From: Candidatus Bathyarchaeota archaeon
GTDB lineage: Archaea; Thermoproteota; Bathyarchaeia; Bathyarchaeales; Bathyarchaeaceae
Assembly: GCA_029883255.1 (NCBI GenBank)
Contig: JAOUJL010000017.1
Span: 1 to 16,709 of the forward strand
Direction: 5' to 3'
Length of the DNA stretch: 16,709 nt
Shown here: piece after piece, positions 11,827-16,707 of the stretch
How positions within the stretch are numbered: the first letter of the stretch is position 1
Layout of the letters: the number at the start of each line of letters is the position of its first letter
Position numbers and translations under genes: made by a program
Notes under the pieces: model-generated
The model's database searches: none
Seen by the model: the letters and a program-made list of their open reading frames with translations, nothing else
Told to the model about the DNA's origin: nothing

Positions 11827-11840
11827 TAGCGCGTGCGCTA
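11827..11840. repeat. TAGCGC-GT-GCGCTA inverted repeat over the transporter stop codon
   Basis: A 6-bp inverted repeat with a 2-bp centre, alternating purine-pyrimidine in most positions, that includes the TAG stop of the DMT transporter. It resembles ATGCGC-AC-GCGCAT at 12984. It could be a terminator stem or a relative of the GCATGC family. Confidence 0.5.
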
Positions 11841-12737
11841 CTCTGATCCTCTTGTTATACGTTTTTGTTTCATTTGGAAGAGTAGGGCAACTCCTATTAA
11901 CGCAAGTGCTATGCCTACTATTTGCGGGTTTTCGAGGTTTTCTCCTATGAAGATTGTGGAGAATAGTGCTGCTGACAGTGGTTCTATTACTGAAAGTATG
12001 CTTCCTTTTGAGGCTTTAACATATTTTAACGCGTAGGAGTACAGTAGATAGGCTAGAAGAGAAGGAATCCAAGCTATCGTGAAGATTAGTAACCAAAGTT
12101 GCAGAGGGAAGTTGATTATTTGTGGAATGGAAAGGGAAATCACCGGCGTTAGGGTTAACACTCCTATTCCGTCGCCATAAAGGGTTAGTGTCCAGCTGGT
12201 GTATCTATTTCTGAGTTTTTTGGTCATCATGAAGTATAGGGTGAAGAGGAGACTTGAAAGTAGCCCAAAGATTATTCCTATAAGGTTGACTTTTAATGAG
12301 GATGAGTCATATACCTTTGCAACGAGTGCAGCGCCTGAAAATGTCAGAATGATAGCCAGCAATTCTCTTGAGGTAATTTTCTCCTTCAGAAAGAGAGAAG
12401 CTGAAATGGTTACAAAAACAGGGTATGTGTAAAAAAGTATTGCCGCCACCGTGACAGTTGTAAGATCCACAGTGTAAAAATAGGATATTCTTTGAAGAGC
12501 CGTGGCGAAGACGCCGAAAATCAAGAAGAGAAGTGCATCAGTTTTCTTGACTTTAAATGAATCTTTGCTGAATATAGCCAGAACAGCCGATAATGTTGCG
12601 AAACTGATGACGAGTCTCAAGGCAATCAAGGTTTCTGGAAGAACCCCGTGTTCAAAAGATAACTTCGCAAGAATCCCCAGCGTACCCCATAAAATTGATG
12701 CTACAGTAATTAGCACGTAACCCTGCATCTCTTTCAT
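11838..12737 (-). CDS. DMT superfamily (EamA) transporter
   Basis: About 299 residues with ten hydrophobic helices in two EamA repeats. The first repeat begins GYVLITVASILWGTLGILAK and the second begins near residue 150 (NLIGIIFGLLSSLLFTLYF). The second repeat contains the common APLSA-like motif as SVIEPLSAALFSTIFIGE. Drug/metabolite transporters of this type export amino acids, sugars or other metabolites. The substrate cannot be inferred. The open frame extends upstream to 12815, but those codons translate the repeat array at the left end of the putative mobile element. I place the start at ATG 12737 with AGG 10 nt upstream. ATG 12728 is also possible. An AATTAAAT box about 25 bp upstream suggests a near-leaderless transcript. 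Confidence 0.88.
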   Translation of the reverse strand: MKEMQGYVLITVASILWGTLGILAKLSFEHGVLPETLIALRLVISFATLSAVLAIFSKDSFKVKKTDALLFLIFGVFATALQRISYFYTVDLTTVTVAAILFYTYPVFVTISASLFLKEKITSRELLAIILTFSGAALVAKVYDSSSLKVNLIGIIFGLLSSLLFTLYFMMTKKLRNRYTSWTLTLYGDGIGVLTLTPVISLSIPQIINFPLQLWLLIFTIAWIPSLLAYLLYSYALKYVKASKGSILSVIEPLSAALFSTIFIGENLENPQIVGIALALIGVALLFQMKQKRITRGSE

Positions 12738-12760: not shown

Positions 12761-12773
12761 ATTTAATTCTTAT
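12761..12773 (+). repeat. Left 13-bp direct repeat (putative target-site duplication)
   Basis: ATTTAATTCTTAT, identical to 16695-16707 and placed exactly at the outer edge of the left inverted repeat. Its complement supplies the probable TATA of the transporter gene. Confidence 0.7.
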
Positions 12774-12845
12774 CCAACCAACCAACGACGGACGACGGGG
12801 GACAACGACGACCAATGGCTAATGGACAACCAGTTATAGGCTTCC
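12774..12845. repeat. Left terminal inverted repeat, degenerate heptad array
   Basis: It starts CCAACCAACCAACGACGG and continues as CA/CG-rich units of about 7 bp (for example ACGGACG, ACGGGGG, TGGACAA). It ends with GGACAACCAGTTATAGGCTTC, which matches the complement of the right end with three mismatches in 21 bp. The middle parts align only loosely, as expected for a repeat array that gains and loses units. Confidence 0.65.
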
Positions 12846-12890
12846 AGAAAGACGGTTAAAAACCTTATACTGGATTCAGCATGCACCTAA

Positions 12891-12903
12891 TGCATGCATG
12901 CAT
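12891..12903. repeat. TGCATGCATGCAT palindromic repeat
   Basis: An exact copy of the 12-bp TGCATGCATGCA unit plus one base. A separate GCATGC lies 7 bp to its left at 12879-12884. Confidence 0.85.
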
Positions 12904-12983
12904 CTAGTTAAAGCGAGAGTTTCTTTAGCGTGTGTTTTCAAGGGTGAGCCTCCATAATGTTGAGCATTTCCAAAGGTCATTTT

Positions 12984-13144
12984 ATGCGCACGCGCATAAT
13001 TTTGTTTCGGGTGTTTCTTGCGTGCATGCCTCTTCTAAACGATATTGAGCGGTTGCGCGCGCGGGAAGAGAATTTTTTCCCAGCCTAGCAAAAGAAGCTA
13101 AGGAAAAGCTCGGAGAAATTGCCAAAATAGAAAAGATAGACTAG
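12984..13144 (+). pseudogene. Frameshifted short coding remnant
   Basis: From ATG 12984 (or 13026) the frame reads through MPLLNDIERLRAREENFF, then stops at 13086. Shifting by -1 at the T run (13073-13078) continues as SLAKEAKEKLGEIAKIEKID to a TAG at 13142. The charged helical composition across both frames suggests one former gene with a frameshift. The junction T-TTT-TTC matches a classical -1 slippery heptamer, so programmed slippage cannot be excluded, but no Shine-Dalgarno or homologue is recognisable. Confidence 0.35.
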
Positions 13145-13210
13145 GGCTTCCTTGAAAAGAGGAGAAAAAGATTTGTGTTGCATATGTGCAATGGAACTTC
13201 AAGATTGCAC

Positions 13211-14095
13211 TTAAAGTATTAGCTCACTCAAATCGTACGTAGCTACACATACAACTGAGTCGGCGCCTCCATAGTAAATAAAGAGTTGATCGTCCATCAG
13301 AATCGCTCCGCAGCTAAAGACAACATTGGGCACTCTTCCGAATCGCTCATAGTCTGTGGTGGGCTCCAAAATCGGCGTTTCAGAACGGTACACCACTCTT
13401 TCGGGGTCGCCCTTATCAAGAAGGAGAACACCAAGCCGATATACTCTCTCAAAGCTAGCGCCGTGATATATGAATAGCCAACCTTCGCCTATCTCTATTG
13501 GTGGGCTGGCGGCCCCTACTTTCCAACAGTCCCACTTTCCCATCCTAGGTCCTATTATTGCCTTTATGTGAGACCAATGCTGGAGATCATCAGAGTATGC
13601 TACACAAATGTCTGGATCTATACGATGGAACATAACATAACGACCGCCAATTTTGCGAGGGAGAATCACGGCATCTTTATTTCGAACACCCGCAAATGGC
13701 GTCCATCTTTCTCTCCAATTCCACCGCTTGTTAGTAAAATCGTCGATTGCAATGGATGTCAAAGCGATCTGATGCGCATTTGAAATACGATCACGCAATG
13801 CTGTATAGGTCACAATGATCTGTTCACCCAGCAAAGTTAGTCGAGGGTCCTCACAACCATCTTTTTCGATATGGTTTGCTGGCTCAAAAACAGCAGACGA
13901 TAGTCGTTCTTCAATATGAAGACCATCCAATGAAGAAGCATAGCCAAGTCGAGAAACCCCATCATTGCCAACAGCACGATACAGAATGTGGACTCGCCCA
14001 CCGACATAAAGAGCGGCAGCATTAAAAACTGCACGTGCCTCCCACGCATGTTCTGATATTGGTTTAAGAATCGGGTTTCCTTGAAATCTCTTCAT
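13211..14095 (-). CDS. Glycoside hydrolase family 130 protein (beta-mannoside phosphorylase/hydrolase-like)
   Basis: 294 residues of five-bladed beta-propeller type. GH130 enzymes phosphorolyse or hydrolyse beta-mannosides, for example releasing mannose 1-phosphate from beta-1,4-mannosyl sugars. Signature segments in order: GNPIL at 6-10, WEARAVFNAAA at 18-28, LYRA at 38-41, EDPR at 82-85 around the expected acidic residue, RNKDAVILP near 138-146, KVGAASPPIEIGEGWLFIYHG at 192-212, and GRVPNVVFSCG near 253-263. The Tyr-His of IYHG is conserved in phosphorylases, which mildly favours phosphorolysis. There is no signal peptide, so it is cytoplasmic. The ATG has AAGGAAG 8 nt upstream and an AAAAATATT box about 30-40 bp upstream. 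It is cargo of the putative mobile element. Confidence 0.9.
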   Translation of the reverse strand: MKRFQGNPILKPISEHAWEARAVFNAAALYVGGRVHILYRAVGNDGVSRLGYASSLDGLHIEERLSSAVFEPANHIEKDGCEDPRLTLLGEQIIVTYTALRDRISNAHQIALTSIAIDDFTNKRWNWRERWTPFAGVRNKDAVILPRKIGGRYVMFHRIDPDICVAYSDDLQHWSHIKAIIGPRMGKWDCWKVGAASPPIEIGEGWLFIYHGASFERVYRLGVLLLDKGDPERVVYRSETPILEPTTDYERFGRVPNVVFSCGAILMDDQLFIYYGGADSVVCVATYDLSELIL

Positions 14096-14127
14096 TAGAA
14101 CTCTTCCTTAGGTTCATTCTAAAACCC

Positions 14128-14140
14128 ACAATATTTTTCG
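14128..14140 (-). promoter_or_regulatory. TATA-like box of the GH130 gene
   Basis: On the minus strand this reads GAAAAATATTGTG, about 33-45 nt before the ATG. It would give a short leader containing AAGGAAG. Motif only. Confidence 0.4.
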
Positions 14141-14181
14141 CTTATGAAGCGAAACTATAGATTTGAGAGCTTTAGTTGCGT

Positions 14182-14187
14182 GCATGC
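14182..14187. repeat. GCATGC site between the CBS and GH130 genes
   Basis: It lies in a 14-bp string TTGCGTGCATGCCT that is repeated exactly at the GCATGC near 13024. It sits 9 bp past the stop codon of the CBS gene. Confidence 0.6.
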
Positions 14188-14195
14188 CTTGCTTT

Positions 14196-14585
14196 TCAAC
14201 TCTTGACTGTCGGCATTCCGACGAGTTCATCCAAGATTCTCCTTAATGTCAACATTCCTACCAAGAATCCTTTTTTGTCCACTACTGGAAGATGTCGTAT
14301 GTGACGTAAGATCATAAGCCTCTTAGCCTGCGCAAATGAAGCGTCTTCACTTATTGTTATGACATTTTTTGACATGACATTTCTTAGGTGCTTGTTTAGA
14401 GGAATCTTACTGACCACGCTTCTGAGGGCATCTCGTTCTGTAAATATTCCCTTACACTTTCTTTTATCGTCGGTTATCACCAGTGCCCCGATATGTTTTT
14501 TGTAAAGAATTCTAATAGCATCTTCAATTGTCGTCTCCGCTCTTGTTGTTATTATATTCTCTATCTTTAGATCTCGAACCTTCAA
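14196..14585 (-). CDS. Two-CBS-domain protein
   Basis: 129 residues forming one Bateman module. CBS1 (about 1-58) contains IITTRAETTIEDAIRILYKKHIGALVITDD and GIFTERDALR. CBS2 (about 66-122) contains VMSKNVITISEDASFAQAKRLMI and HLPVVDKKGFLVGMLTLRRIL. Such stand-alone modules bind adenine nucleotides or S-adenosyl ligands in the cleft between repeats and regulate partner proteins. Here the partner is unknown. The length leaves no room for an effector domain. The start is TTG, preceded by a GGTGG-type site about 10 nt upstream, and no ATG lies close to the first strand. It is oriented like the GH130 gene but separated from it by 100 bp and a GCATGC site. Confidence 0.9.
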   Translation of the reverse strand: MKVRDLKIENIITTRAETTIEDAIRILYKKHIGALVITDDKRKCKGIFTERDALRSVVSKIPLNKHLRNVMSKNVITISEDASFAQAKRLMILRHIRHLPVVDKKGFLVGMLTLRRILDELVGMPTVKS

Positions 14586-14667
14586 CTTCCACGAACCACC
14601 ACAATCAGTCTTTCAGGTTCTTCACATATAGTTATACATTGTATGACTAAATATTTTGGGTCAGGTT

Positions 14668-14675
14668 GCATGCAT
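14668..14675. repeat. GCATGCAT before the T-arm-like sequence
   Basis: A member of the GCATGC family about 20 bp upstream of the first tRNA T-arm-like copy and about 130 bp before the TIM-barrel gene. Confidence 0.6.
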
Positions 14676-14687
14676 ATATCACCCGAG

Positions 14688-14709
14688 TGGGGGAGGTTCA
14701 AATCTCTCC
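14688..14709 (+). repeat. tRNA T-arm-like direct repeat, copy 1
   Basis: This 22-bp segment matches 16350-16371 with one mismatch. The last 17 bp, GAGGTTCAAATCTCTCC, are identical. GTTCAAAT resembles a tRNA T-loop and is followed by an acceptor-like CCAGCACA. Folded, TGGGGGAG pairs with CTCTCCCA around an 8-nt loop, one base larger than canonical. No matching 5' acceptor strand (GTGCTGG) or anticodon arm is present, so this is not a tRNA gene. Confidence 0.6.
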
Positions 14710-14796
14710 CAGCACACTTTAGAATGCACCCGCTTTGAAACAGATCATTCTATTGATGGCAACTTTAATCTGATCCTTCTTGAGAAGTCTTGTTGT

Positions 14797-15645
14797 ATGG
14801 ACAATTTCGTTGAAAACCTGATTTCAGTTTCGAGTGCACCTATTGCAAAACTCGTTGGCAAGAAATACTATGACCTTGATGGCACTCTCAAAGTGATGAA
14901 AAAGGTATTTCGAGAATCAGTTGTTGATGGTTTTGAGCTGCAGCTTCAGCCAGAATGGGATAGTGAGAATCCACCATTGACTGATACGCAATTTGCTGAC
15001 TGGACAAAGACTCCTAAATATACAGTTGACGATATCTTGAGGATCTTCAAGAAGCAAAGTCTGCCAATTCTATCAGTACATGCTAGTAGAGACATTGGCT
15101 CGTATCTATGTTCAAGTCGAAAGCAAGACAATGAGAAAGGAAGACAGCTAATTCATGATTCGCTGTATTTAGCGAATGATTTGGGAGCACATGTTTGTGT
15201 ATTCCATCTGTGGGATACTTGGAAGACGAAAATCAATTGGCAAAAACTGAAGAAGGACTTGCTGGACATGATACATCCATTTGCCAAGGTTAAGGCTTCA
15301 GTTGAAAACATCCCAACTCATGTGAAGGGATATACACCTTTTTTATTAGTCAAGCATTTTGACCACATAACACTTGATGTAAAGTGGTCTTCTTTGTACA
15401 ATGAGTTGGATAGGTTTGAATCGATAGTTGACAAGATTGCAAATGTTCATATGCGTGGGAGATTAAGAGGGGACAGATGGTTTCTAAACAGTTCAAGTTT
15501 TGGTTTCTATGAGGTTTTGGATTTGATCAGAAAAAGATGGAAGTATCCAGGGCTACTAACAATTGAACCTGAAGGAGAAAGGAATATTTCACTTTTCAAC
15601 AGCTTTGTGAAGGCTATGAAGTCCTTAAGGACACAATCTGACTAA
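14797..15645 (+). CDS. TIM-barrel sugar isomerase/epimerase-like protein (AP endonuclease 2 fold)
   Basis: 282 residues with the xylose-isomerase-like barrel rhythm: VVDGFELQLQ, LPILSVHAS, LGAHVCVFHLWD, KASVENIP, HITLDVKW, IANVHMRG and GLLTIEPEG. Candidate metal ligands at the strand ends are E170, D194, H218 and E257, which fit the divalent-metal site of sugar-phosphate isomerases and epimerases. The usual His shortly after the Asp (DxGH) is replaced by D-V-K-W, so substrate or metal geometry may differ. I start at ATG 14797. The frame is open from TTG 14656, but those codons translate the T-arm-like repeat and are not protein-like. The Shine-Dalgarno is weak. Codon use looks less A/C-biased than in radA. 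It is cargo of the putative element and convergent with the hydrolase gene. Confidence 0.85.
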   Translation: MDNFVENLISVSSAPIAKLVGKKYYDLDGTLKVMKKVFRESVVDGFELQLQPEWDSENPPLTDTQFADWTKTPKYTVDDILRIFKKQSLPILSVHASRDIGSYLCSSRKQDNEKGRQLIHDSLYLANDLGAHVCVFHLWDTWKTKINWQKLKKDLLDMIHPFAKVKASVENIPTHVKGYTPFLLVKHFDHITLDVKWSSLYNELDRFESIVDKIANVHMRGRLRGDRWFLNSSSFGFYEVLDLIRKRWKYPGLLTIEPEGERNISLFNSFVKAMKSLRTQSD

Positions 15646-15647
15646 TA

Positions 15648-15655
15648 GCATGCGC
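15648..15655. repeat. GCATGCGC after the TIM-barrel stop codon
   Basis: It begins 3 bp after the TAA stop and is another GCATGC-family site at a gene edge. Confidence 0.55.
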
Positions 15656-15685
15656 ACAAAATAGCGAGATTGAGTCGTATCTCCA

Positions 15686-15706
15686 CCGTGTACGCGCTTT
15701 GCACGG
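15686..15706. terminator. Possible bidirectional hairpin between convergent genes
   Basis: CCGTG and CACGG flank an 11-nt loop midway between two convergent stop codons. A short stem with no long U-tract makes it a weak terminator candidate. Confidence 0.3.
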
Positions 15707-15716
15707 GCAAGTCCCT

Positions 15717-16247
15717 TTAAAATTTTATTTCGTTCTCATTTTTCGCAGTTACAAACCATCCGCCTAAAACTTGGTTGTGGTGTCCAATGATCTGTTCTGC
15801 TGTTAGATTGGAAGAATCCCAGGTACTATGTGCATCTTTCACTAAGACCACGTCATATCCCAAGCTGTAGGCTCGACGGCAGGTTGTATCTATGCAATAC
15901 TCCGTTTGCAGACCAGCAATGACCAGCTTCTCTATCCCTTTGGATTTGAGTCTTTGGTGCAAGGTTGTTTTGTGAAAGGCGTCAGGAGTCTCTTTCTCAA
16001 TCACTACGTCTCCTTCTTTTGGAACAATGGTGGGATGGATTTCCCATCCTGGAGTCCTGATTTCGTCTGGGTCACCTTTGCTTCCTTTATTCTGTACGTA
16101 AAATATCGGAACGCCTTCATCACGTGCTTTGCCTATCACACGCTGAACCTTAGACAGAAGTTTTTCTCTGTCATAAACTGGGTCTGGGCCTTGGAAATTT
16201 CCCAACTGCATGTCAATAACTAATAAAGCTGTGTTGACCATCTTCAT
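15717..16247 (-). CDS. Isochorismatase-fold cysteine hydrolase
   Basis: About 176 residues of the isochorismatase/nicotinamidase family. The catalytic triad is complete (numbered from the GTG at 16250): D13 in LLVIDMQ, K86 in VVIEKETPDAF and C119 in LQTEYCIDTT. TEYC with the preceding AGLQ is the usual nucleophile loop. DAHSTW near the C-terminus and the Rossmann-like core strands are in place. Members hydrolyse amides such as nicotinamide, ureidoacrylate or biuret-type compounds, or the isochorismate vinyl ether. The metal-binding D-x-H of true nicotinamidases is not evident, so the substrate is open. Starts at GTG 16250, ATG 16247 and ATG 16241 are all possible, with no strong Shine-Dalgarno to decide. 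A TTTTTATGT element about 55 bp upstream may be the promoter. Confidence 0.9.
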   Translation of the reverse strand: MKMVNTALLVIDMQLGNFQGPDPVYDREKLLSKVQRVIGKARDEGVPIFYVQNKGSKGDPDEIRTPGWEIHPTIVPKEGDVVIEKETPDAFHKTTLHQRLKSKGIEKLVIAGLQTEYCIDTTCRRAYSLGYDVVLVKDAHSTWDSSNLTAEQIIGHHNQVLGGWFVTAKNENEIKF

Positions 16248-16349
16248 CACGCTTGATTCTTATCTACAGGCAACAAACTGAAAAGGATTATTGCAGATTC
16301 ACATAAAAATGAGGATTTTCGGGGAGTAATTTCGGGAGATATCTCCTTT

Positions 16350-16371
16350 TGGGCGAGGTTCAAATCTCTCC
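16350..16371 (+). repeat. tRNA T-arm-like direct repeat, copy 2
   Basis: It matches 14688-14709 at 21 of 22 bases. It is followed by TGACCCA, so that CTGACCC plus A reads like a tRNA acceptor 3' strand with its discriminator base. The T-stem pairs poorly (two mismatches under canonical register), and no complete cloverleaf can be drawn upstream. Confidence 0.55.
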
Positions 16372-16377
16372 TGACCC

Positions 16378-16395
16378 ATTTGCATGCATGCAAAT
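16378..16395. repeat. 18-bp perfect palindrome containing TGCATGCATGCA
   Basis: ATTTGCATGCATGCAAAT is a perfect palindrome that begins at the last base of the T-arm/acceptor-like sequence. Confidence 0.85.
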
Positions 16396-16467
16396 TGAAC
16401 AATGTTGTTTTTAGTGGTTTAAAATGTTAAGCTCATGTTGTCTGAATGTAGCAACCACTGAAATCAA

Positions 16468-16479
16468 TGCATGCATGCA
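16468..16479. repeat. TGCATGCATGCA palindrome
   Basis: The rightmost exact 12-bp copy in the window, in non-coding DNA. Confidence 0.85.
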
Positions 16480-16558
16480 CTGTTTACTCGATTTCGATAA
16501 TATCTATACTTAGTCGTTTCTGACACTACCTACCTTCCTATTCCAGTAATATCCAACC

Positions 16559-16590
16559 TATACCTTCAGGTGTATCCTGAATCGGGTATA
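16559..16590. repeat. Interrupted 12-bp inverted repeat
   Basis: TATACC-TTCAGG, loop TGTAT, CCTGAA, a TCG bulge, then GGTATA. All twelve pairs are Watson-Crick. It could act as an RNA hairpin or as a pair of nested operator half-sites close to the right end of the element. Confidence 0.55.
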
Positions 16591-16610
16591 CAGTTTTAAA
16601 CCCTCTTTTA

Positions 16611-16694
16611 GAAGGCTATAATCGGTTGTCCTTGTCCCCGTTGGTTAGCCCGTCGTCCATTGGCCGTCGTCCGTTGTTTGTCCCCGTTGGTTGG
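16611..16694. repeat. Right terminal inverted repeat, degenerate heptad array
   Basis: It begins with GAAGGCTATAATCGGTTGTCC, the complement-like partner of the left repeat's inner end. It continues in GT-rich 7-bp units (GTCGTCC, ATTGGCC, GTCGTCC, GTTGTTT) and ends GTTGGTTGG, exactly complementary to the left tip. Confidence 0.65.
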
Positions 16695-16707
16695 ATTTAA
16701 TTCTTAT
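16695..16707 (+). repeat. Right 13-bp direct repeat (putative target-site duplication)
   Basis: ATTTAATTCTTAT, an exact copy of 12761-12773, directly outside the right inverted repeat and only two bases from the window end. Confidence 0.7.

What the first reader, a model, noticed from the sequence alone, without database searches (positions are those of the whole stretch)
12761..16707. A 3.9-kb transposon-like unit with heptad-array ends, 13-bp direct repeats and no transposase
Seen: ATTTAATTCTTAT occurs in direct orientation exactly outside a left CCAACCAAC tip and a right GTTGGTTGG tip. The inner ends of the two arrays also match as inverted repeats (18 of 21 bases). A chance 13-bp exact match at exactly the two symmetrical positions is very unlikely. 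Known: inverted ends bracketed by short direct repeats are the footprint of DDE-type transposition or casposon-like integration. Inference: a non-autonomous element carrying four metabolic or regulatory genes, with ends made of degenerate 7-bp repeats, which would be an unusual terminus. The duplication is long for a typical insertion sequence.
Basis: partly seen in the sequence, partly recalled or inferred. Interest (0 to 1): 0.85.

Follow-up and report, generated by a model that had tools for sequence, protein, structure and literature searches.

The report
Cargo-carrying mini-transposon of a Cas1 family
A 3.9-kb stretch of archaeal DNA carrying four ordinary genes has the footprint of a jumping element whose relatives elsewhere in the same archaeal class carry Cas1, the integration enzyme best known from CRISPR immunity, so it is probably a gene-carrying passenger of such Cas1-driven elements.

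Summary
ATTTAATTCTTAT occurs exactly twice in the window (12761, 16695), in direct orientation, just outside inverted CCAACCAAC/GTTGGTTGG tips; the four genes between show no transposase. The same anatomy recurs in Bathyarchaeia: C-rich simple-repeat tips and a duplicated AT-rich target of about 13 bp. In 13 of 19 regions examined with a transposon-type Cas1, the Cas1 gene lies inside such a unit. One 4.5-kb Cas1 unit has an empty site in two related genomes. In 12 Cas1 units, 80 of 85 other ORFs were scanned: no DNA polymerase B, Cas2, Cas4, transposase or recombinase. They resemble the PolB-less 'family 5' casposons proposed in 2022 (PMC9755687), but the tips and duplication are not described in what I read of it. 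The window unit is best read as a non-autonomous, gene-carrying relative; its GH130-CBS block is 95-97% identical to a locus in two close genomes. Not shown: an empty site for the window, a Cas1 copy with exactly these ends, or any activity. The contig stops 2 bp after the right repeat.

The parts
12761..12773 (.). left target-site duplication ATTTAATTCTTAT
   Evidence: direct repeat of 16695-16707, 13/13
12774..12861 (-). left end: CCAACCAACCAAC tip, degenerate C/A/G-rich array, inner inverted-repeat part
   Evidence: I1 arm 12824-12861, I4, I5; subterminal TGAATCNNGTATA motif on the - strand at 12878
13187..14607 (-). block 95-97% identical to the GH130-CBS locus of genomes G072 and G069
   Evidence: in the stretches fetched around those loci only four weak matches to a GTTGG-type tip plus core, none within 6 kb; other tip types were not sought there
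13211..14095 (-). cargo gene: GH130 family (beta-1,4-mannooligosaccharide phosphorylase-like)
   Evidence: PF04041 E=2.3e-59
14196..14585 (-). cargo gene: paired CBS-domain protein
   Evidence: PF00571 E=2.8e-28
14656..15645 (+). cargo gene: xylose-isomerase-like TIM-barrel protein (start uncertain)
   Evidence: PF01261 E=7.6e-7, 29.5 bits, just under the 31.1 cut-off
15717..16250 (-). cargo gene: isochorismatase-family hydrolase
   Evidence: PF00857 E=3e-38
16594..16694 (+). right end: inner inverted-repeat part, degenerate array, GTTGGTTGG tip
   Evidence: TGAATCGGGTATA motif at 16578
16695..16707 (.). right target-site duplication ATTTAATTCTTAT; contig ends at 16709
11838..12737 (-). neighbouring EamA-type transporter gene; the unit lies just upstream of it (context, not part of the unit)
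   Evidence: PF00892; G069, G070 and G072 hold only 23-28% identical relatives

Best explanation
12761-16707 is a non-autonomous transposon of a Cas1-driven (casposon-type) family widespread in Bathyarchaeia. A Cas1 integrase supplied in trans would join the two G/T-rich 3' ends (GTTGGTTGG) to staggered positions in a preferred AT-rich 13-bp target upstream of the EamA gene; gap repair then duplicates the 13 bp. The unit holds four genes unrelated to transposition; at least the GH130-CBS pair looks copied or moved from a chromosomal locus. Shown: the footprint, its recurrence, Cas1 inside such units, one empty site. Inferred: that Cas1 moved this unit, the strand-joining steps, and the origin of the cargo.
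For: Exact direct 13-mer at mirror positions outside inverted tips, 13/13 direct against 6/13 inverted. 13 of 19 regions with a transposon-type Cas1 have it inside a TIR/TSD-bounded unit (12, L202). With the boundary set by the tips, 10 of the 13 give 13 bp and L209 too by my reading. Scan of 118 loci (1.34 Mb): 14 units, 9 of them 13 bp; control 0. Strand-aware tip scan of 131 loci (1.47 Mb): 22 pairs (18 distinct) at 13 bp against 0 in the opposite-strand control. Duplications of 12 units differ from each other (mean 7.8 of 13, 66 pairs). Empty site for the G178 Cas1 unit in G176 and G172. E161, H226 and D238 invariant in 13 of 13 Cas1. Tip-core motif and transposon-type Cas1 co-occur across 256 genomes (23 against about 10 expected, p=8e-7; lists taken by hand, the latter cut off).
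Against: No empty site could be sought for the window's own insertion beyond its left side: its host genome is not held, the right flank is missing, and G069, G070 and G072 have no EamA ortholog. No Cas1 unit with the window's subterminal array on both ends was found; nearest are single right ends near Cas1 in G144 and near a Cas1 fragment in G087. 6 of 19 Cas1 regions gave no bounded unit. Maximal exact repeats are 13 bp in only 5 of the 13 Cas1 units, 14-15 in 6, 18 and 26 in one each, since letters next to the boundary often match; L211 and L212 stay ambiguous. Many tip-core ends have no exact partner; in G066:C228 the two facing cores are reverse complements, in G048:C235 they differ at 2 sites. 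No contiguous empty site for the G072 unit in 10 other genomes. Among 55 window 13-mers with 12 or more A/T, 5 score as high on the target matrix as the window's, itself counted twice.
Confidence: 0.78

Rival explanations
1. A non-autonomous element moved by an ordinary DDE transposase with a long (10-14 bp) AT-rich target duplication; Cas1 units merely look alike.
For: DDE elements also give TIRs with target duplications, some as long as 13 bp (recalled). The window's own mobiliser is not identified. One 111-aa protein of the G072 unit has weak HTH hits, one of them a transposase HTH model (E=0.0026).
Against: Cas1 lies within the same type of unit in 13 of 19 regions. No transposase among the 80 other ORFs scanned from 12 Cas1 units at E<=0.001 or among the four cargo genes.
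Confidence: 0.1
2. Tip plus 13-bp string is one interspersed repeat unit (MITE-like); two independent copies happen to bracket four chromosomal genes.
For: The tip-plus-core motif occurs in 56 of 256 genomes, up to 28 per genome; many ends have no exact partner.
Against: The window 13-mers are direct, asymmetric and identical; chance under the family's own target preference is about 1.4e-4. Inner ends are also inverted repeats. Opposite-strand control is 0.
Confidence: 0.09
3. Site-specific cassette system (integron- or tyrosine-recombinase-like) using the AT-rich 13-mer as crossover core.
For: Neighbouring units can share one core (G116:C31 cores 3073, 4411, 5625; G066:C228; G139:C81).
Against: Cores differ from unit to unit and no recombinase showed in the ORFs scanned. 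Tandem insertion with target re-use is also reported for known casposons (PMC6563490, passages).
Confidence: 0.03

Closest known systems
Casposons families 1-4 (PMC4046053, passages read)
   Same: Cas1 as the only candidate integrase, terminal inverted repeats, perfect direct repeats (1-27, median 15 bp); tandem insertions reported (PMC6563490, passages)
   Different: Known ones are described as carrying PolB; none was seen in the Cas1 units scanned here. Tips here are C-rich simple repeats, and the window unit lacks Cas1 altogether
Proposed casposon family 5 from hot springs (PMC9755687: start of abstract, section 18 and passages read)
   Same: Cas1 near subtype I-A Cas1, conserved active site, mostly no PolB, no C-terminal HTH reported, small hypothetical proteins, members but one over 50% identical
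   Different: Target duplication, tip structure, Bathyarchaeia hosts and cargo-bearing derivatives are not described in what I read; sequences were not compared
MetMaz-C1 mini-casposon of Methanosarcina mazei (PMC10359463, passages read)
   Same: Cargo between TIRs and TSDs, without its own Cas1, translocates in the laboratory
   Different: Artificial construct; 14-bp TSD and a different TIR
MITEs / non-autonomous DNA transposons (recalled)
   Same: Ends without a transposase, moved in trans
   Different: 3.9 kb with four genes, ends of Cas1-unit type

Membership tests
Casposon | Cas1 homologue encoded in the element | tested here: not met
   Window unit: no Cas1 among its four genes. Met for the related units, so the window unit is at most a non-autonomous derivative
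Casposon | Terminal inverted repeats | tested here: met
   Tips CCAACCAAC/GTTGGTTGG; inner 18 of 21 and 38 nt at 74%
Casposon | Target-site duplication | tested here: met
   Exact 13-bp direct repeat in the window; about 13 bp in related Cas1 units
Casposon | Family B DNA polymerase (families 1-4) | tested here: not met
   No PolB among 80 of 85 non-Cas1 ORFs of 90 aa or more in 12 Cas1 units, nor in the window's four genes; one weak primase-like hit (E=2.6e-4)
Casposon family 5 (proposed) | Cas1 clade near subtype I-A, over 50% identity, no PolB, no HTH | tested here: inconclusive
   13 transposon-type Cas1s form one clade (100/100), placed beside A. fulgidus and other Bathyarchaeial Cas1 rather than the M. 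mazei casposase, with weak support (88/83) and long branches; 12 are 48-78% identical to the G072 protein; family 5 sequences were not compared
DDE insertion sequence / MITE | DDE transposase in an autonomous relative with the same ends | tested here: inconclusive
   None among the 80 ORFs scanned from 12 Cas1 units; no search for DDE elements with these ends was run
Integron cassette / tyrosine integrase element | Recombinase gene and fixed core | tested here: not met
   No recombinase by Pfam in the ORFs scanned; cores vary between units

The most novel reading that the evidence does not exclude
Bathyarchaeia host a large class of PolB-less Cas1 transposons whose ends are telomere-like simple repeats (in most, the G/T-rich strand runs 5' to 3' outward; unit number can vary between the two ends of one element). 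Because any DNA between two such tips can be moved, Cas1 acts there as a general shuttle for host metabolic genes, building tandem cassette-like arrays on shared 13-bp targets. The window unit is a natural cargo shuttle of this kind.
Probability: 0.3. Interest if true: 0.9.

Novelty: new variant of a known kind. Interest (0 to 1): 0.74.

Why it matters
Casposons are the proposed source of the CRISPR adaptation module and were described as self-synthesizing, PolB-bearing elements. Small PolB-less Cas1 units with an AT-rich target duplication of near-constant length, simple-repeat tips and gene-carrying derivatives would make Cas1 a vehicle for moving metabolic genes in a widespread archaeal class. 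Where their Cas1 proteins carry a name in the listing, it is 'CRISPR-associated', so CRISPR surveys may miscount them. The defined ends and target make the integration reaction directly testable.

Tried and rejected
The idea that the 13-mer is part of the inverted end was tested and rejected for the window: 6/13 as inverted, 13/13 as direct. Empty site at the window's EamA locus: four relatives with 57-73% identical EamA (L001-L004) share no upstream sequence I could recognise by eye (L005 not read), and G069, G070 and G072 lack the gene. Searching the class with the right array by BLASTN gave mostly weak hits (97 of 256 genomes at E<=1, best 1.3e-9); it led to the family only after the contexts were read. 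My first end-finder was too strict and missed most ends and was replaced. The empty site of the G072 unit was not found: close genomes matched the left flank only. No tRNA in the window; two Rfam matches, both under the gathering score. NCBIfam puts these Cas1 proteins over its general Cas1 cut-off and under its subtype cut-offs; PADLOC names them Cas1 of several kinds. Cargo capture: the GH130-CBS identity excess over the RadA region (96.9 against 91.9% to G069) is suggestive only, since G072 and G069 are also closer there (96.6 against 94.4%). One codon-position comparison (RadA against G069) was out of register and is not used. In one search one array-like hit was in a bacterial locus (L009), taken as chance.
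Full report
Observation. ATTTAATTCTTAT lies at 12761-12773 and 16695-16707, in direct orientation, and nowhere else in the window; the maximal exact repeat is 13 bp. Inside it stand CCAACCAACC on the left and GGTTGG on the right. The inner ends are also inverted repeats (18 of 21, read; 38 nt at 74%). Between the ends are four genes: GH130 family, two CBS domains, a xylose-isomerase-like TIM barrel (just under the Pfam cut-off) and an isochorismatase. None of the four is a transposase or Cas1 by Pfam; one shorter antisense ORF was not scanned. No tRNA was found, and two Rfam matches were under the gathering score. The contig ends 2 bp after the right repeat.

Host. No genome is held for the window. 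RadA is 95% identical to two genomes, G069 and G072, and 90% to G070, reached through loci named Candidatus Bathyarchaeota. Synteny with G069 runs to about 11430 and then stops; G069, G070 and G072 hold only 23-28% identical relatives of the EamA gene. The window is therefore inferred to be bathyarchaeial, and the unit to lie in an accessory region.

Recurrence. The motif GTTGGTTGG-RTTAAANTTTAA, with up to 2 mismatches, occurs in 56 of 256 class genomes, up to 28 times in one (G089); the pattern read backwards gave one hit in each of 7 genomes. After the 13-bp core the flank often begins CCCAAACCC, CCCACACA or CCAACC, and neighbouring units can share a core. In G116:C31 three cores, all ATAAAACTTTACC, delimit two adjacent units. 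Many ends have no exact partner in the stretch read.

Cas1. A 12.6-kb unit in G072:C42 has ends identical over their first 70 bp, within an alignment of about 112 columns, and an identical 13-bp direct repeat ATAAAAATTTAAT. It encodes a Cas1 (Pfam E=4e-49), two proteins with weak or partial ParB matches, an Mrr-type nuclease and a DNA methylase. That Cas1 has relatives at about 40-78% identity in many genomes, many of them fragments, besides a second group at about 30% taken to be CRISPR Cas1 (the CRISPR context of that group was not checked). I examined 19 regions. A scan that does not assume the core sequence found a bounded unit containing Cas1 in 12, and a second scan added L202: 13 of 19. 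The six misses are L197, L199, L205, L208, L210 and L213, some on short contigs. With the boundary set by the tips, 10 of the 13 give a 13-bp duplication (L157x, L198, L201, L203, L204, L206, L207, L214x; L200 and L202; for L200 another left partner gives 18 bp). L209 gave 11 but reads as 13; L211 and L212 are ambiguous (12-15). The maximal exact repeats are 13 bp in 5 of 13, 14-15 in 6, and 18 and 26 in one each, as letters beside the boundary often match or belong to a neighbour's tip. Tips include CCCCTCCTCC, CCCAACCC, CCCAAACCC, CCAACC, CTTTTTCTCTC, TTCCTTCC and CCCCACACA. In G123 the two tips differ by one seven-base CCCAAAC unit.

Controls. Over 118 loci (1.34 Mb) the scan gave 14 units, 9 with 13 bp and the others 11, 11, 14, 16 and 18, against 0 in the reversed-but-not-complemented control. 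A strand-aware scan of 131 loci (1.47 Mb) gave 22 pairs at 13 bp, 18 distinct by place, 9 of them holding a Cas1 gene; counts for other word lengths were 14 at 12, 19 at 14, 11 at 15 and 8 at 16; the opposite-strand control was 0 at every length. The loci were chosen because they held tips or Cas1, so these are not genome-wide rates. The window itself does not pass because its right tip has a C within 12 bases. Duplications of 12 different units share on average 7.8 of 13 letters (maximum 12, 66 pairs). A matrix from 10 of them places the window 13-mer among the top 7 of 16697 window positions, but only among the top 5 of 55 positions with 12 or more A/T, its two copies counted in both. Tip-core motif and transposon-type Cas1 co-occur: 23 genomes against about 10 expected, p=8e-7, and 10 of 16 genomes with a full or nearly full Cas1, p=3e-4 (lists taken by hand, the Cas1 list cut off).

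Empty site. The flanks of the 4.5-kb Cas1 unit of G178, joined, match contiguously in G176 (77%, 1-444) and G172 (72%, 3-453). Of the 19 other genomes searched, 12 more matched in part and 5 not at all. At the target G176 and G172 have a single copy two bases shorter (ATAAAATAAAT in G176) and not letter-identical to the duplication; two of the partial loci that I aligned, G173 and G175, are also collinear without the insert but too diverged at the target to read. For the G072 unit no contiguous empty site was found in 10 other genomes.

Enzyme. Thirteen aligned transposon-type Cas1s share E161, H226 and D238 without exception (equating these with the Cas1 active site is recalled). They form one clade (100/100) apart from 15 other Bathyarchaeial Cas1s; the M. 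mazei casposase falls outside both, but support is weak and branches are long. By profile the nearest solved structures are 4n06 (131 bits) and 6opm (101 bits) (that 6opm is the M. mazei casposase is recalled). A protein search gave 2212 relatives at E<=1e-5 among 7997 scored; the 120 listed are 55-94% identical, and those with names are called CRISPR-associated Cas1. Of the 85 non-Cas1 ORFs of 90 aa or more in 12 units, 80 were scanned: no PolB, Cas2, Cas4, transposase or recombinase at E<=0.001, one weak primase-like hit. L202 was not scanned.

Cargo. Window 13187-14607 is 96.9% and 95.4% identical to G069 and G072, where GH130-CBS lies next to other genes, among them an ORF that reads to me like a glycosyltransferase, with only weak, distant matches to a GTTGG-type end. 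The host RadA region is 91-92% identical. For 14600-16380, G069 and G070 have no match and G072 only 47 bp; G066 has a 75% match to the TIM part, and G064 and G065 70-73% matches to the isochorismatase part. This suggests a mosaic, possibly captured cargo; it is inference.

Mechanism and comparison. The simplest account is Cas1-mediated integration in trans of a passenger carrying only ends. Families 1-4 casposons are described as PolB-bearing with TSDs of 1-27 bp, median 15 (PMC4046053, passages). A mostly PolB-less family 5 has been proposed from hot springs (PMC9755687, section 18 and passages), and mini-casposons translocate in M. mazei (PMC10359463, passages). Searches for casposon with Bathyarchaeia gave no paper, and with Bathyarchaeota one, which mentions the two in separate places; further searches are. 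The library holds open-licence papers only. I therefore file the related units as casposon-type and the window unit as works-like, not member: it lacks Cas1.

Verdict. A real transposon footprint, best explained as a non-autonomous, cargo-bearing relative of PolB-less bathyarchaeial Cas1 transposons: a new variant of a known kind.

Noticed in passing
window 14688-14709 and 16350-16371: 22-nt direct repeat TGGGsGAGGTTCAAATCTCTCC, 21 of 22 alike, resembling a tRNA T-arm, on either side of most of the TIM-barrel gene and the isochorismatase gene; no tRNA was called there. Possibly remnants of an integrase-type insertion.
   Followed up: no
window 12891, 16381, 16468; L019, L037, L038: TGCATGCATGCA palindromes recur inside the unit near both ends and also in relatives.
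   Followed up: no
L083, L085, L086, L087, L095 (G190, G069, G192, G060, G059): A repeat beginning TACCCCTCAC and running through a CTATTCCATT-like stretch into CCGTCGTCC arrays is shared by several Bathyarchaeia genomes.
   Followed up: partly
G072:C42:94115-106706 and G239:C79 (L207:1296-8956): Cas1 units carry restriction-modification genes (Mrr-type nuclease and methylase; ThaI-type nuclease and methylase).
   Followed up: no
many genomes: Numerous Cas1 fragments, often of the C-terminal part and some with stops, suggest many decayed copies of these units.
   Followed up: no
L214 plus L153 (G144:C10): Several tip-core ends within 8 kb around one Cas1 look like nested or tandem units.
   Followed up: partly
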